Virus record (IMG/VR): IMGVR_UViG_3300037261_000012
Location: 30,884-94,883 of that record
DNA length: 64,000 bases
Reading direction: 5' to 3' (one strand)
Origin: a virus
Part shown: one piece after another, positions 17,445-26,733 of the stretch
How positions within the stretch are numbered: position 1 is the stretch's first letter
Layout of the letters: the number at the start of each line of letters is the position of its first letter
Position numbers and translations under genes: made by a program
Notes under the pieces: generated by a model
Told to the model about the DNA's origin: nothing
What the model saw: only the letters and a program-made list of their open reading frames with translations
Database searches by the model: none

Positions 17445-17475
17445 CCAGTATTGATAGTCCAATGGAGTGGAAAGC

Positions 17476-19452
17476 ATGTTCCTGACTAAAGACTCACAAG
17501 AGATTCAGAACCTTTCTGATGAAGACCTTCGCATACTCCTTGGTGGTAAAGGAGCAGGGCTGGTGCAAATGATTAATGCCGGTGTTAATGTTCCTCCCTT
17601 CGTAGTTTTACCTACTACTGTGTGGAAGGAGTACAGCAAAGCACCAAAAACAACTATGAAGGCTATATCTCAGGAGATTAACTCAATACTTACTAATTTC
17701 AAGAAGCAAATTGGGTATATCCCTTTAGTATCTATTAGGTCTGGTGCGCGTGTAAGCTGCCCCGGAATGTTAGACACGATCTTGAATGTTGGGCTTGATA
17801 TTACAACCCAGGACTTCTGGATGAGCAAGCTTGGCAAAGAGTGCTACGAGAACAGCCTGCACCGGTTGGTTACCATGTATGGTTCAGTGGTGAAAGGAAT
17901 CGACAGGAAGGAATTGGAGCAATGCACTCCTGCTGCTGCGTTCGAACTCTATCAGCGCCGGTCTGGTGAGGTGTTCCCATTCGTGAAGTACCAGATCATC
18001 GGAGCCATAGAAGCCGTGCTAAAAAGCTGGAACAACGAGCGCGCAAAGTATTACCGCAAGATGCACAATATTCCTGAAACATGGGGTACAGCCGTGGTAA
18101 TACAAGCCATGGTGTTCGGCAATCTTAATGATCAATCAGGTACGGGAGTTCTTTTTACACGCAATCCTGATAGTGGTGCCAATGCTATCACAGGGGAATT
18201 CTTGATAAACGCTCAAGGTGAGGACGTGGTTGCTGGGATCAGGACTCCGATGCCGTTGCACAAGCTGGCTGAGTGGAACAAGCTGGTGTCTGACGAACTT
18301 GCTTCAGTTGTGGAGAAACTGGAGAAATCCAAGCAGGATGTTCAAGACGTGGAATTTACGATCCAGGATGGCAAGCTGTTCATTCTGCAAACTAGGAATG
18401 CCAAGCGGAGTGCCAAAGCAGCCATCAGGATTGCCCTGGACATGGTGAAAGAGGGCTTGATTTCAGCAAATGTGGCCGTAGGTCGCGTGACTGCCAGAGA
18501 TATGGATTTGGTGCAAATGAATGTGATTAGCCCGAAATTCAAGAATGTACCTGCCTTTACTGGAATAGGAGCGTGCAGTGGAGTAGTTACTGGGGTGCCA
18601 GTGTTCAGCACGGCAGATGCGGTAGCCAGCAAGGTTCCGTGTATCCTCATTACCCAAGAAACCACGCCGGAAGACATCGCAGGAATGGATGCAGCGGTTG
18701 GAATACTGACTATGACCGGTGGAACAACCAGCCACGCTGCTGTTGTTGCGCGGGGGATGAACAAGCCATGTGTAGTGGGTTTGGGCGTTGGCCTTAGTGA
18801 ATTAGCCAATTATGCATGGGAGAAGGTTAGCATCTGCGGTGAGACAGGACGAGTGTGGTTCATGGAAGTTCCTGTTACTAATGGCAGCCAGAATGGAGAC
18901 CTTGCTGAGTTCAAGGCCATGGTGATTGCTGCCCTTGGAATCATTCCGGTGGTTACTGATCCTACCACTCAGTGCAAGGAAATGATGCTTGATTTGAGCA
19001 ATGAAACAAACATAGCCAGAGCACAATTGCTGGTGATGAAAGCGGCTGGTATGTGCGAGATGCTGTACGTGGACTTCCGCAAGGAGAACTTGCCGGAAGC
19101 CAGCCAGTCCTTCAACCGGATGTACGGGTCAACTACATTAGAGCAATCTATAGTGGATGCTGTCTGCAATCAATTGCAGTCCGTAGCCCCCTCTGGGTGG
19201 GAAGTCCACATCAAGGTAATGGTGAGCAATGGGATCAAAACAACCATGCCAATGATCGGAACTATGGACGACATCAAGAGTCTGATTCTTGCTAAAGGTA
19301 GTGTGGTGGTTGGCGGGGAAGACCTGGATGCGGCCACTAAGAAAGTGCTTGAGTGGAAAAAGGCTGAAGGGTTGGAGTTAATGTCAGTTGGAGGGTACAT
19401 GCCTGGAGTCAAATCTGTCCTCTCAATTGAGCAGGCAATGCAGATAGAGTAA
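17476..19452 (+). CDS. PPDK-like protein lacking the PEP/pyruvate barrel
   Basis: 658 aa. The ATP-grasp half is close to pyruvate phosphate dikinase: GGKGAGL, SIRSGARVSCPGMLDTILN, LHRLVTMYG, GTAVVIQAMVFGNLNDQSGTG and NAQGEDVVAGIRTP. The phosphohistidine domain follows with TGGTTSHAAVVARG (catalytic His about residue 420). Canonical PPDK is ~880 aa and ends in a PEP-binding TIM barrel; here residues ~480-658 do not resemble that barrel. It may pass phosphate from ATP through the His domain to another acceptor. It has its own promoter (P10); ATG 17476 follows ATGGAGTG, ruling out 17467. Confidence 0.8.
   Translation: MFLTKDSQEIQNLSDEDLRILLGGKGAGLVQMINAGVNVPPFVVLPTTVWKEYSKAPKTTMKAISQEINSILTNFKKQIGYIPLVSIRSGARVSCPGMLDTILNVGLDITTQDFWMSKLGKECYENSLHRLVTMYGSVVKGIDRKELEQCTPAAAFELYQRRSGEVFPFVKYQIIGAIEAVLKSWNNERAKYYRKMHNIPETWGTAVVIQAMVFGNLNDQSGTGVLFTRNPDSGANAITGEFLINAQGEDVVAGIRTPMPLHKLAEWNKLVSDELASVVEKLEKSKQDVQDVEFTIQDGKLFILQTRNAKRSAKAAIRIALDMVKEGLISANVAVGRVTARDMDLVQMNVISPKFKNVPAFTGIGACSGVVTGVPVFSTADAVASKVPCILITQETTPEDIAGMDAAVGILTMTGGTTSHAAVVARGMNKPCVVGLGVGLSELANYAWEKVSICGETGRVWFMEVPVTNGSQNGDLAEFKAMVIAALGIIPVVTDPTTQCKEMMLDLSNETNIARAQLLVMKAAGMCEMLYVDFRKENLPEASQSFNRMYGSTTLEQSIVDAVCNQLQSVAPSGWEVHIKVMVSNGIKTTMPMIGTMDDIKSLILAKGSVVVGGEDLDAATKKVLEWKKAEGLELMSVGGYMPGVKSVLSIEQAMQIE
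19166..19177 (+). repeat. Hairpin repeat copy 9
   Basis: In frame in the PPDK-like gene (CNQLQS). Confidence 0.9.
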
Positions 19453-21580: not shown

Positions 21581-21658
21581 AGTAAGATGGCAGAGTGGCC
21601 AAATGCAACGGACTGCAAATCCGTAAAGTCGTCGGTTCGAATCCGACTCTTACTTCCA
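21581..21658 (+). tRNA. tRNA-Cys(GCA)
   Basis: Acceptor AGTAAGA/TCTTACT, anticodon GCA in loop CTGCAAA, T-loop TTCGAAT, encoded CCA. Confidence 0.9.
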
Positions 21659-21666
21659 AGATATTG

Positions 21667-22065
21667 TTGTAAGCCTTCTTATTTCGTCGTTCGAAGGCTG
21701 GAGTTGCTGAGATAGGTGTGCAAGAAGGCGGTTTGACTCCGCCCAGGTCCACCAGATGTGCATTGATTGGCTGAAGGGTTACCCAACAAGTCCAAAGGGA
21801 GATTAGTAAGCCTGTGTACACAGGACGAACATCCTAGAGGTCAGGTAAGCATGGCAAGGTCAATGTACATCTGATGGGCCTGTCCCGATTTCGATTGTGC
21901 ATCGACGGCAGTGAGGACAACACGACAAGGGCGTATCCCGATCACCAATACCCGCCAACGATAGCGAGTATTTTCCGGCACTGCGTCTCGCGGCGTAAGA
22001 CGGACGGGGTTCCCAGAACCTTGTAACCAAAGATGGGTGGTGATGCCTCGAAAGAGGACATCATC
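21667..22065 (+). ncRNA. ssrA: Circularly permuted (two-piece) tmRNA gene
   Basis: The 3' acceptor piece comes first: T-arm GGCGG-TTTGACT-CCGCC (21727-21743), acceptor strand CAGGTCC (21744-21750), A, CCA ending at 21754. After an intervening segment (21755-21875) the 5' strand GGGCCTG (21876-21882) pairs with CAGGTCC, including the G3-U70 wobble that marks alanine tRNAs and tmRNAs. The tag reading frame is 21954-21998: ANDSEYFPALRLAA then TAA, a typical tmRNA tag (AND start, LAA end). The precise outer ends (21667, 22065) are estimates. It would rescue stalled ribosomes, tagging products for proteolysis. Confidence 0.92.
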
Positions 22066-22166
22066 AGAAGTACAAATATAGGCTCACACCGGTAATGCGG
22101 GATTCAAAGCCCACCACTGGTGCCACCCTGAAGCCTTTAGTAAGGTTGCTTTGTATTTCTGATGAT

Positions 22167-22258: not shown

Positions 22259-22435
22259 AGTATTATGTTGGTAGGTAGTAGATGATATGGGTGGTAGTGC
22301 CAAGTTGCCCTTACGATAAGCTACTGGTAGTCCAGCAAACCCGGTGCCTATGTGGGTGCCGGGAACATAAGATAAGGAAAGTGTAGCTCAATTTTTAATG
22401 GAGTGAATCAATATTCTAAATTTGGAAAGAAATAT
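22259..22435 (+). other. Gap in the tRNA cluster without a recognisable gene
   Basis: 177 bases between the two serine tRNAs. It contains a CCCGG...CCGGG hairpin near 22339-22362 and a GTAGCTCAATTTTTAATGGAG segment near 22384 that resembles a D-arm of a decayed tRNA. No complete RNA gene can be supported. Confidence 0.4.
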
Positions 22436-22611: not shown

Positions 22612-22686
22612 GGCTCTGTAGCTGAGACATGATTAGCGCGACTTTGAAAAGGTCGAGAGATTGGACGGTACCAATCGGAGCCACCA
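22612..22686 (+). tRNA. tRNA-Phe(GAA) with abnormal T-arm
   Basis: Acceptor GGCTCTG/CGGAGCC, anticodon GAA in loop TTGAAAA, encoded CCA. The T-arm reads ATTGG-ACGGTA-CCAAT, a six-base loop without the TTCRA motif. Confidence 0.8.
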
Positions 22687-22784: not shown

Positions 22785-22858
22785 GGGTTGGTAGCTCAAT
22801 GGTAGAGCATCGGTCTCCAAAACCGAGGACTGAGGATCGTAACCTTACCGGCCTGCCA
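22785..22858 (+). tRNA. tRNA-Trp(CCA) with ATCGTAA T-loop
   Basis: Acceptor GGGTTGG/CCGGCCT with G-U pairs, anticodon CCA in loop CTCCAAA, encoded CCA. The T-loop is ATCGTAA instead of TTCRANN, exchanging the usual T54-A58 pair for A54-T58. Confidence 0.82.
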
Positions 22859-23062: not shown

Positions 23063-23473
23063 ATGAAAAGTACAGCAGTAGCAGAGTGGTCTTTCCCTAC
23101 TGAGGTGAACCACCCTAAGAAAATAGCCGCAGCAATGGAGGCTGCGGTCAAGCATAGCCAAAAAATAGAGAGGAAGTATCTGGAGGAAGGGTGGGCAAAA
23201 GCTCATGGTCTTCAGTATGTCCATCTGCGTGGATATGATATTTTTGGTAAACTGTGCTCAAATGGTGGATTGACCATAGCTTATGTAAAGCCCAAGCACG
23301 ATTACCAGAATGTGGTACTTATTTCCACCGGCTTGTGCAATCCAATTGACTCGTTCTACAAGGAAGATGGGCGTTTCTATGCCGCCAGGGAATTTGCATC
23401 TGGACATTACATAAAGGTGCGTGTTCCTGGTGGTTACGGGGTGGCAGAATATCTGATGCTCATGTTCGATTGA
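23063..23473 (+). CDS. Hypothetical protein, 136 aa, inside the tRNA cluster
   Basis: ATG follows CGGAGGAAGT. Mixed alpha/beta soluble protein with an aromatic-rich centre (YVHLRGYDIFGKL). No family recognised. It is the only protein gene between tRNAs, which suggests separate acquisition. Confidence 0.65.
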   Translation: MKSTAVAEWSFPTEVNHPKKIAAAMEAAVKHSQKIERKYLEEGWAKAHGLQYVHLRGYDIFGKLCSNGGLTIAYVKPKHDYQNVVLISTGLCNPIDSFYKEDGRFYAAREFASGHYIKVRVPGGYGVAEYLMLMFD

Positions 23474-23649: not shown

Positions 23650-23724
23650 GGGCCGGTAACTCACTGGTGAGAGTTTCGTCCTCATAAGGCGAGAGGGGTG
23701 GATCGTAACCACCACGGCCCACCA
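23650..23724 (+). tRNA. tRNA with CAT anticodon (Met or Ile2), ATCGTAA T-loop
   Basis: Acceptor GGGCCGG/ACGGCCC (last pair mismatched), anticodon CAT in loop CTCATAA, encoded CCA. The T-arm GGTGG-ATCGTAA-CCACC has the same swapped T-loop as tRNA-Trp. One of the two CAT tRNAs in the window is likely an isoleucine tRNA for AUA. Confidence 0.8.
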
Positions 23725-23960: not shown

Positions 23961-24131
23961 ATGCGGGCAGTAGCATGTGATGTTACACGAAAAGCCATTG
24001 AAAGAACTCGCAGTGAACCATGGCGAGATACCTACGTTGTTAATCTTAAGACCGGCAGCGCCTGGTTTGCTGATGGCAACGAACAAGTCATTCCGATGAA
24101 AGCAGTCCTGGGCGTGGAGAAAGACCAGTGA
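23961..24131 (+). CDS. Hypothetical protein, 56 aa
   Basis: ATG follows AAGGAGACATCATA. Small soluble protein (MRAVACDVTRKAIERTRSEPWRD...). GTGA overlap with the phosphatase-like gene implies coupling. Unknown. Confidence 0.55.
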   Translation: MRAVACDVTRKAIERTRSEPWRDTYVVNLKTGSAWFADGNEQVIPMKAVLGVEKDQ

Positions 24132-24628
24132 AAGTAGGACTAGGTACACTAAAAATGCCTCTTTGGTTTGGGCGCTATGCTGTCGTTACTGGTGGCCCGT
24201 ACTACGACTGCCCGCGCTATATGTTTGGCGTGAAGATGGCGGAAGAAATACGTGCGCCCAATCAAGTGAGTGTGCCTACTAGGGACTTTGGTGTGCCGAA
24301 GACCTCTGCCCTTGACAATGGAGTAAAGTTGACCGTGCAAGCGGTATTGTCGGGGCAGCAGGTCTACGTTGGCTGCATGGGGGGTAAAGGAAGAACTGGA
24401 TTGTTCTTAGCTGTGTTGGCCAAAGCTTTTGGGGTAAAGAACCCAGTTGAATATGTCAGAAAGCATTACTATGAACACGCGGTGGAAACCAAAGAACAGT
24501 ATGCTTTCGTCACCCACTATCAAGTGCCACGCCAGGTGCTTCTGAGTATCAGCCTGAGCAAGTGCCTGTCGTTCATGCGCCCAAAGAACATAACTTCCAC
24601 TATCAATCACAATGATGATTGGAAATAG
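24128..24628 (+). CDS. CX5R dual-specificity-phosphatase-like protein 1
   Basis: 166 aa, GTG start in a GTGA overlap. VYVGCMGGKGRTGLFLAVLAKAFG holds the CX5R P-loop of tyrosine and dual-specificity phosphatases (nucleophilic Cys, Arg, then TG), followed by a helix and the YVRKHYYEHAVET segment. It is paralogous to the protein at 25948, which shares the P-loop and YVRK-YxxHAVE. The substrate could be phosphoprotein, phosphorylated RNA or a nucleotide. Confidence 0.72.
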   Translation: MKVGLGTLKMPLWFGRYAVVTGGPYYDCPRYMFGVKMAEEIRAPNQVSVPTRDFGVPKTSALDNGVKLTVQAVLSGQQVYVGCMGGKGRTGLFLAVLAKAFGVKNPVEYVRKHYYEHAVETKEQYAFVTHYQVPRQVLLSISLSKCLSFMRPKNITSTINHNDDWK

Positions 24629-25740: not shown

Positions 25741-25951
25741 ACACTCAATTTATTGGGTTAGGATCAGAGGCGGAGATGGTGAGTTTACGTGGTCTGCCAA
25801 AGATCAAGAGGATGTGTACTTCCCATTTTCAGTTATTGGTAGTGACGAGTGTTTCGAGGAGGGGGTTAATGATGACCAACTTGAAGTGTTGGCCGGGCCT
25901 TTCAATGAAACTCAAATTTTTGCAATGTTGCCTGAGGGTGGAATGTCATGA
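25737..25951 (+). pseudogene. Frameshifted paralogue of the 2465 gene
   Basis: ATG 25737 reads MNTQF and then leaves frame. Adding one T to the TTT run at 25749-25751 gives MNTQFYWVRIRGGDGEFTW followed by SAKDQED, VIGSDE and EVLAGPF, ending at TGA 25949-25951, which overlaps the next ATG. The restored ~71-aa protein aligns along its length with the 60-aa protein at 2465. One base is therefore missing, by mutation or sequencing error. Confidence 0.65.
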
Positions 25952-26733
25952 GCAAGAAGCAGTATGAATTGAGTCAGGAAGACCAGTTCTTCCATGACAT
26001 GTTTATGAAGGAAAAGGCCGATAAAGGACGACCAGACGACCTTAGCCCTACAAATTGGACTGCCCAGGATAAGAAATGCGCGCATTCACATCCGGCACTG
26101 AAGATAGTCGTTGGGGACAAAACCTACGAAATATACGGTGGTGCCTGCGGAAGTCCGATACACAAATGCGACATCTATATAGGGCTGGACAGATACAGTA
26201 TGGAGTACCATACCAAGCAGTACCCATGGCAGGACAAGGAAGTTACTACGGAAATAGACATACTATATCCTATTACTGATATGTCTCCGCCAAGTGATTC
26301 GGCGAATTTCAAGCTGATGGTAGCCTGGATTTGCAATCAATTGCAGTCTGAAAAGAAAATCCACATCGGTTGTATAGGTGGGCATGGAAGAACTGGTACA
26401 GTGTTGGCGGCGGTGGTAGCCAATATGATGGGTGGAGAAGGAGCCATCCAGTATGTACGGAAGAACTACTGCGATCATGCAGTGGAGTCGGCTAGTCAAG
26501 TGAGTTTCCTGATGAAGCACTTCGGGTGCTCCAAGGCAGTTGGGTACAAAGAGCACGGTGGCCTTGGATTCGTGAAAGATTGGGGTTCGGCCATGAAGGG
26601 CAGCCAGTGGGTGTCCCAACCTCATCAAAAGGAAGGCCAAACCCAAATCTATAAAAGCAGCAAAGCAAAGACCAGTTTTTCTGGGGCCAAGAGGTCGTTC
26701 TCAAACGTAACCAGCCTGCGATCAATTTGGTAA
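25948..26733 (+). CDS. CX5R dual-specificity-phosphatase-like protein 2
   Basis: 261 aa. HIGCIGGHGRTGTVLAAVVANMMGG is the CX5R P-loop, followed by YVRKNYCDHAVES as in the paralogue at 24128. An N-terminal ~110-residue part contains clustered Cys and His (KKCAHSHPALK, GGACGSPIHKCDIYIG) that may bind metal. The C-terminus is basic and low-complexity. A hairpin repeat is in frame at 26333-26344, read CNQLQS. Confidence 0.7.
   Translation: MSKKQYELSQEDQFFHDMFMKEKADKGRPDDLSPTNWTAQDKKCAHSHPALKIVVGDKTYEIYGGACGSPIHKCDIYIGLDRYSMEYHTKQYPWQDKEVTTEIDILYPITDMSPPSDSANFKLMVAWICNQLQSEKKIHIGCIGGHGRTGTVLAAVVANMMGGEGAIQYVRKNYCDHAVESASQVSFLMKHFGCSKAVGYKEHGGLGFVKDWGSAMKGSQWVSQPHQKEGQTQIYKSSKAKTSFSGAKRSFSNVTSLRSIW
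26333..26344 (+). repeat. Hairpin repeat copy 13
   Basis: In frame in the 25948 gene (CNQLQS). Confidence 0.9.

What the first reader, a model, noticed from the sequence alone, without database searches (positions are those of the whole stretch)
21667..22065. Phage-encoded circularly permuted tmRNA with tag ANDSEYFPALRLAA
The CCA-bearing acceptor piece (ending 21754) lies upstream of the coding piece (starting 21876). Their acceptor strands CAGGTCC and GGGCCTG pair with the alanine-specific G3-U70 wobble, and a 14-codon tag beginning AND and ending LAA follows. Permuted two-piece tmRNAs are known from a few bacterial lineages; one inside a phage RNA island would supply the phage with its own ribosome rescue and proteolysis tag, possibly one that host ClpXP/adaptors treat differently.
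Basis: partly seen in the sequence, partly recalled or inferred. Interest (0 to 1): 0.9.

Follow-up and report, generated by a model that had tools for sequence, protein, structure and literature searches.

The report
Phage-encoded permuted two-piece tmRNA
An uncultured tailed phage carries, in its tRNA gene cluster, its own swapped-order (two-piece) version of tmRNA, the bacterial RNA that frees stuck ribosomes and tags their unfinished proteins for destruction; it is a real but divergent member of a kind already present in several cultured phages.

Summary
Window 21659-22066 holds a permuted, betaproteobacterial-type tmRNA gene: RF04321 matches at 59.8 bits (cut-off 47, E 4e-9), RF01850 (beta_tmRNA) end to end at E 1.3e-18 but below its own cut-off (64.7 of 84); ARAGORN misses it. 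The acceptor piece ends in CCA at 21754; the coding piece starts at 21876 and carries tag ANDSEYFPALRLAA. Acceptor stem with G3-U70, T arm, P2 and a 3' hairpin form in an unconstrained two-piece fold. Against 46 other permuted tmRNA cores the pairing covaries strongly (0.493 versus 0.133 in shuffles). The window alone carries a double change, G19-C56 to A19-U56, in the tertiary elbow pair: good evidence of selection. It lies between tRNA genes in a 94.9-kb record related to Delepquintavirus. No SmpB gene is found, so it would borrow the host's.

It is not a new kind. Cultured Stenotrophomonas, Pseudomonas, Xanthomonas, Acinetobacter and Alcaligenes phages carry the same type, and two-piece phage tmRNAs are published. 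The 46 related phage records examined lack it. Specific here: strong divergence, swapped elbow pair, 121-nt structured spacer, -LRLAA tag. Expression and function are untested.

The parts
21659..21754 (+). Acceptor (tRNA-like 3') piece of the two-piece tmRNA, ending in ACCA; 5' end probably made by 3' processing of the tRNA-Cys that ends at 21658
   Evidence: RF01850 match from 21644, RF04321 from 21702; two-piece fold; exact 5' end inferred
21665..21670 (+). TGTTGT, pairs with 21917-21922 (ACAACA) or 21922-21927 (ACGACA) of the coding piece
   Evidence: fold; same TGTTGTAA motif in other phage permuted tmRNAs
21672..21699 (+). Hairpin AGCCTTC/GAAGGCT, counterpart of the CCTTC/GAAGG hairpin of other phage permuted tmRNAs
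   Evidence: fold; sequences
21716..21723 (+). P2 helix, 3' strand (GTGTGCAA), pairs with 21895-21902
21727..21743 (+). T arm, loop UUUGACU with U at position 56 in place of C
21744..21750 (+). Acceptor stem, 3' strand CAGGTCC, with U70 of the alanine G3-U70 pair
21755..21875 (+). Spacer between the pieces (121 nt), expected to be cut out; GATGTGCATTGA/TCAATGTACATC helix extends the acceptor stem; ends in TGAT before GGG
   Evidence: fold z -4.28, pair probabilities 1.0
21876..22066 (+). Coding piece: acceptor 5' strand 21876-21882, D-loop with A19, P2 5' strand 21895-21902, tag frame, CCTTGTAACCAAAG box 22019-22032, 3' hairpin 22038-22066
   Evidence: RF01850 match to 22066
21954..21998 (+). 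Tag reading frame ANDSEYFPALRLAA plus TAA stop
   Evidence: alignment to the tag region of RF01850 and RF04321
21497..23724 (+). tRNA cluster in which the tmRNA lies (Met, Cys, [tmRNA], Ser, Ser, His, Phe-like, Gly, Trp, Pro, Arg, Met), with an open reading frame at 23063-23473
   Evidence: ARAGORN and Rfam

Best explanation
This is a phage-borne ssrA gene of the permuted, betaproteobacterial type. The transcript, probably shared with the neighbouring tRNAs, is cut by host tRNA-processing enzymes (RNase P at the GGG start of the coding piece, 3'-end nucleases after the CCA) so that the 121-nt spacer is lost and two RNAs remain, held by the acceptor stem, P2 and the TGTTGT helix. Host alanyl-tRNA synthetase charges it through G3-U70; host SmpB brings it to stalled ribosomes; translation switches to the internal frame and adds (A)ANDSEYFPALRLAA, which host ClpXP should degrade. 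During infection this would keep ribosomes cycling when mRNAs are cut or degraded and would clear unfinished proteins. Shown here: gene anatomy, family match, covariation, absence of a detectable SmpB in the record. Inferred: expression, processing, charging, function and benefit.
For: RF04321 above its cut-off; RF01850 end-to-end at E 1.3e-18. Unconstrained two-piece fold recovers acceptor stem, T arm, 9-bp P2, hairpin and TGTTGT helix. Across 47 distinct permuted tmRNA cores, P2 is 97.6% paired with double changes at all 7 pairs; covariation 0.493 versus 0.133 in shuffles, 0 of 500 reaching it, and 0.06-0.10 when slid. The tertiary 19-56 pair is C-G in all 46 others and U-A here, a double change that keeps pairing. 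Intact 14-codon frame with AND start and LAA end. Same kind of gene beside tRNA genes in cultured Menderavirus phages. [quoted passage not shown]
Against: No RNA or protein data for this phage. RF01850 score is below that family's curated cut-off (64.7 of 84). None of 46 records of related phages has a permuted tmRNA above the cut-off, and 19 of them tested have no one-piece tmRNA above the cut-off either, so conservation among close kin could not be shown. Pseudoknots were not tested.
Confidence: 0.85

Rival explanations
1. A decaying or inert tmRNA copy picked up with the tRNA cluster: structure recognisable but not charged, processed or used.
For: Most divergent of the set: 59.8 bits against 69.7-162.8 for the phage or viral-contig RF04321 matches compared; T-loop C56 and D-loop G19 both changed; absent from related phages.
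Against: Every tRNA-like helix is intact, several through compensatory changes including the 19-56 swap; tag frame open with correct start and end; 3' box CCTTGTAACCAAAG kept. A decaying gene should lose pairs, not swap them.
Confidence: 0.1
2. A decoy: the tRNA-like part sequesters host SmpB or blocks host tmRNA rather than tagging proteins, as proposed for the tag-less tmRNA of mycobacteriophage DS6A.
For: No SmpB found in the record; a DS6A-type tRNA-like domain is reported to inhibit tmRNA (PMC4131195; PMC11915505).
Against: DS6A lacks the coding part; here the tag frame and the 3' box are conserved, which a decoy does not need.
Confidence: 0.1
3. Chance assembly of a T-arm-like and a D-loop-like piece among tRNA genes.
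For: Tag-like short frames are common by chance; a dense tRNA cluster supplies T arms; the RF01850 score is below its curated cut-off.
Against: E 1.3e-18 over 331 positions; 7 of 7 acceptor pairs with G3-U70, P2, tag, 3' box and 3' hairpin all in order.
Confidence: 0.01

Closest known systems
Betaproteobacterial permuted (two-piece) tmRNA, Rfam RF01850, e.g. Azonexus, Thauera (L137-L181)
   Same: Gene order, acceptor stem with G3-U70, T arm, P2, tag starting AND, CCTTGTNACCAAAG box and 3' hairpin
   Different: About 50-56% identity to the Rhodocyclales-type sequences in a rough alignment; their spacers are 23-42 nt against 121; their tags are 10 aa ending FA[ILVM]AA; window has A19-U56 and encodes CCA, most of them read ACCC or ACCT
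Permuted tmRNAs of Stenotrophomonas Menderavirus phages (Marzo MZ326868, Bhz51 OR797040, Mendera)
   Same: Beta-type permuted tmRNA beside phage tRNA genes; annotated as tmRNA/ssrA in Marzo and Bhz51
   Different: Tag ANDDSYTVRIAA; spacer about 57 nt; T4-like myophages; G19-C56 retained
Permuted tmRNA of Pseudomonas phage SM1 (Samunavirus, KU245542) and Xanthomonas phage XacN1 (AP018399)
   Same: Long spacers of 112 and 114 nt; SM1 tag ANDTSFDVRLAA also ends RLAA
   Different: Not annotated in their records; G19-C56 retained; acceptor stems GGGGCTG and GGGCGTG; scores 118.6 and 123.2 bits against 59.8
IMG/VR contig L225 permuted tmRNA
   Same: Identical acceptor stem GGGCCTG/CAGGTCC and tag ANDAFYEDLRLAA ending LRLAA (tag read by eye)
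   Different: 30-nt spacer, G19-C56 retained, about 55% identity
Two-piece tmRNA of marine phage Melnitz and relatives
   Same: Phage-borne permuted tmRNA (PMC9004378)
   Different: Alphaproteobacterial type, linked to a glutamine riboswitch

Membership tests
Permuted tmRNA (Rfam RF04321) | Covariance model score at or above the curated cut-off of 47 bits | tested here: met
   59.8 bits, positions 1-213 of 213
Permuted tmRNA (Rfam RF04321) | CCA-bearing acceptor piece encoded upstream of the coding piece, with pairing acceptor strands and G3-U70 | tested here: met
   7 of 7 pairs
Permuted tmRNA (Rfam RF04321) | Internal tag reading frame with stop, ending in a ClpXP-type C-terminus | tested here: met
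   ANDSEYFPALRLAA then TAA
Permuted tmRNA (Rfam RF04321) | Transcript cut into two RNAs that stay paired | not testable with these tools
   Needs RNA from infected cells; fold of the two pieces is consistent
Beta_tmRNA (Rfam RF01850) | Score at or above the curated cut-off of 84 bits | tested here: not met
   64.7 bits, though full length with E 1.3e-18; hence 'beta-type', a divergent relative, rather than a filed member
Beta_tmRNA (Rfam RF01850) | Best match among the overlapping models of its clan | tested here: met
   RF01850 is the one kept among overlapping matches of the clan; no standard tmRNA RF00023 match in the record at E 0.001
Functional trans-translation system | SmpB encoded with the RNA | tested here: not met
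   No PF01668 match in the 94.9-kb record; phage tmRNAs can be expected to use host SmpB, and the record may be incomplete
Functional trans-translation system | Alanine charging and tagging of nascent chains | not testable with these tools
   Needs biochemistry; only G3-U70 and the tag frame can be seen in the sequence

The most novel reading that the evidence does not exclude
Beta-type permuted tmRNA is a mobile gene carried by phages across hosts whose own tmRNA is one-piece, and the window's version is a phage-adapted form (swapped elbow pair A19-U56, long structured spacer, -LRLAA tag) that works beside, and differently from, the host tmRNA. In Stenotrophomonas all 31 genomes tested have a one-piece tmRNA and 4 of 61 also carry a permuted one.
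Probability: 0.3. Interest if true: 0.55.

Novelty: new member of a known kind. Interest (0 to 1): 0.35.

Why it matters
It adds a highly divergent phage tmRNA that a standard annotator (ARAGORN) overlooks, with a double change in an otherwise invariant tertiary pair that acts as a natural mutant test of tmRNA architecture. With the cultured phages found here that carry the same type (Stenotrophomonas, Pseudomonas, Xanthomonas, Acinetobacter, Alcaligenes), it makes the question of why phages bring their own tmRNA directly testable, including in hosts that already have a one-piece copy.

Tried and rejected
Exact-pattern scans of IMG/VR built on the window's own coding-piece start found nothing, as did one for U56 T-loops; one for A19 D-loops returned two contigs that are not tmRNAs. 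blastn of the window tmRNA against 50,697 phage records: no match even at E 10. Weak RF04321 hits in two related phages (L095, L096; 23.6 and 21.3 bits) were read and are ordinary tRNA genes. A first genome pattern was off by one base and found nothing; the corrected one gave 45 loci. A first two-piece fold started two bases late and is superseded. Rfam RF04321 starts the acceptor piece at 21702 using a second GTTG; I prefer the TGTTGT at 21665-21670, which matches where other phage tmRNAs begin, because it gives six pairs (its pairing probability in the fold is split between two partners). Inferring a betaproteobacterial host from the tmRNA type was rejected, since phages of gammaproteobacteria carry the same type. 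Prophage origin of the extra Stenotrophomonas copies was looked for in L163 and L176; neighbours are ordinary or unassigned genes, so this stays open.

Full report
OBSERVATION. The acceptor strand CAGGTCC is at 21744-21750, followed by ACCA to 21754; GGGCCTG starts the coding piece at 21876; the tag frame is 21954-21998. Rfam's merged permuted tmRNA model RF04321 scores 59.8 bits (cut-off 47, E 4.4e-9 over 64 kb). With permissive filters the betaproteobacterial model RF01850 matches end to end, 21644-22066, with 64.7 bits and E 1.3e-18, but below its own cut-off of 84. ARAGORN finds nine tRNAs but not this gene.

STRUCTURE. Folding the two mature pieces together without constraint gives the acceptor stem, the T arm, a nine-pair P2, a six-pair continuation, an AGCCTTC/GAAGGCT hairpin, a TGTTGT helix and the terminal hairpin of the coding piece. 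The 121-nt spacer forms a long helix continuing the acceptor stem and, with the acceptor strands, folds 4.3 sd better than shuffles. The same arrangement, ending in TGAT just before GGG, is seen in several other phage permuted tmRNAs. Pseudoknots were not tested.

COMPARISON. I gathered 45 bacterial loci and 35 plus 10 viral contigs, all of which read as permuted tmRNAs on inspection, then cultured phages found by blastn with two of the viral ones. Sixteen of these loci were checked with Rfam: all carry RF04321 above the cut-off, and all but L220 also RF01850 above its own. Forty-seven distinct tRNA-like cores, window included, align without gaps. Pairing is 99.1%, and the covariation score is 0.493 against 0.133 in shuffles and 0.06-0.10 when slid. 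Acceptor and T-stem pairing were required when sequences were extracted, so the informative parts are P2 (97.6% paired, double changes at all seven pairs) and the tertiary pair 19-56: C-G in 46 and U-A only in the window. Scans made without fixing these bases found no other case. Some viral and the bacterial patterns did fix C56 and G19, so 'unique' applies only to what was searched.

TAG. ANDSEYFPALRLAA, preceded by the charged alanine, gives AANDSEY...LAA. In E. coli, AANDENY binds SspB and the ALAA end engages ClpX (PMC8512704); the window keeps A, A, N, D and Y of the first and LAA of the second, with R in place of the A before LAA. Rhodocyclales-type bacterial tags here are 10 aa and end FA[ILVM]AA; RLAA or RIAA endings occur in phage or viral-contig tmRNAs: SM1 ANDTSFDVRLAA, Marzo ANDDSYTVRIAA, L225 ANDAFYEDLRLAA, L186 ANDAFYGEDRLAA. 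That ClpXP would degrade the tagged protein is inference.

CONTEXT. The record is a 94,883-bp IMG/VR virus with DNA polymerase A, portal, capsid and DNA-transfer genes. The capsid protein is up to 75% identical to metagenomic phages and 62-63% to Stenotrophomonas Delepquintavirus. None of 46 related records has RF04321 above the cut-off, and none of the 19 tested has RF00023 above it. Delepquintaviruses carry a smaller tRNA cluster without tmRNA. The record has no SmpB. Near-identical records may be hidden by the tools, and the record may be incomplete.

KNOWN KIND. Two-piece phage tmRNAs are published: 53 of 133 distinct phage tmRNA genes were called two-piece, mostly aquatic (PMC9004378). 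Menderavirus phages carry annotated beta-type copies among their tRNA genes; DLP6, SM1, XacN1, BUCT628 and QDWS595 carry unannotated ones. Huge phages encode tmRNA and SmpB (PMC7162821). Phage Wildcat's tmRNA is its most highly expressed lytic gene (PMC7474061). All 31 sampled Stenotrophomonas genomes have a one-piece tmRNA and 4 of 61, two of them chosen because they were already known to carry it, also have a permuted one, so the permuted form appears to move between genomes.

VERDICT. A genuine, probably functional, strongly divergent phage permuted tmRNA: a new member of a known kind. Expression, processing and benefit to the phage remain to be shown.

Noticed in passing
window 22785-22858, 23650-23724, 22612-22686: tRNA-Trp and the second tRNA-Met have T loops ATCGTAA (A54/U58 in place of T54/A58), and a tRNA-Phe-like gene (GAA anticodon, missed by ARAGORN and by Rfam at its cut-off) has loop ACGGTA; unusual elbows in several tRNAs of one cluster.
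   Followed up: no
L188, L195, L201, L205, L210, L219, L223: Several viral-contig permuted tmRNAs encode unusually long tags of about 24-28 residues (e.g. ANADTFDFTAMSFTGNTVSGKSKVALAA, AKASTFKYMQVPASVALAAIDGEFALAA) against 10 in betaproteobacteria.
   Followed up: partly
L163, L176 (Stenotrophomonas), L238-L241: Four of 61 Stenotrophomonas genomes carry a second, permuted beta-type tmRNA besides the native one-piece gene; the two read have long tags (ANADYYDQDEEVILRVA, ANADYYDQNEQKELLAA).
   Followed up: partly
L187, L190, L198: Permuted tmRNA candidates in viral contigs in which no clear tag frame was found by a simple search.
   Followed up: no
window 22067-22166 and 22259-22435: Stretches of the tRNA cluster without any assigned gene or RNA family; may hold degenerate or unusual tRNAs.
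   Followed up: no
window 17467-19452: 661-aa protein with pyruvate phosphate dikinase-type ATP-binding and PEP-utilising domains in a phage.
   Followed up: no
window 24128-24628 and 25948-26733: Two proteins with DSP-PTPase phosphatase domains close to the tRNA cluster.
   Followed up: no
L232 (Pseudomonas phage SM1), L233 (XacN1), L234 (BUCT628), L235 (QDWS595), L231 (DLP6): Permuted tmRNAs above Rfam cut-off that are not annotated in the GenBank records of these cultured phages.
   Followed up: yes
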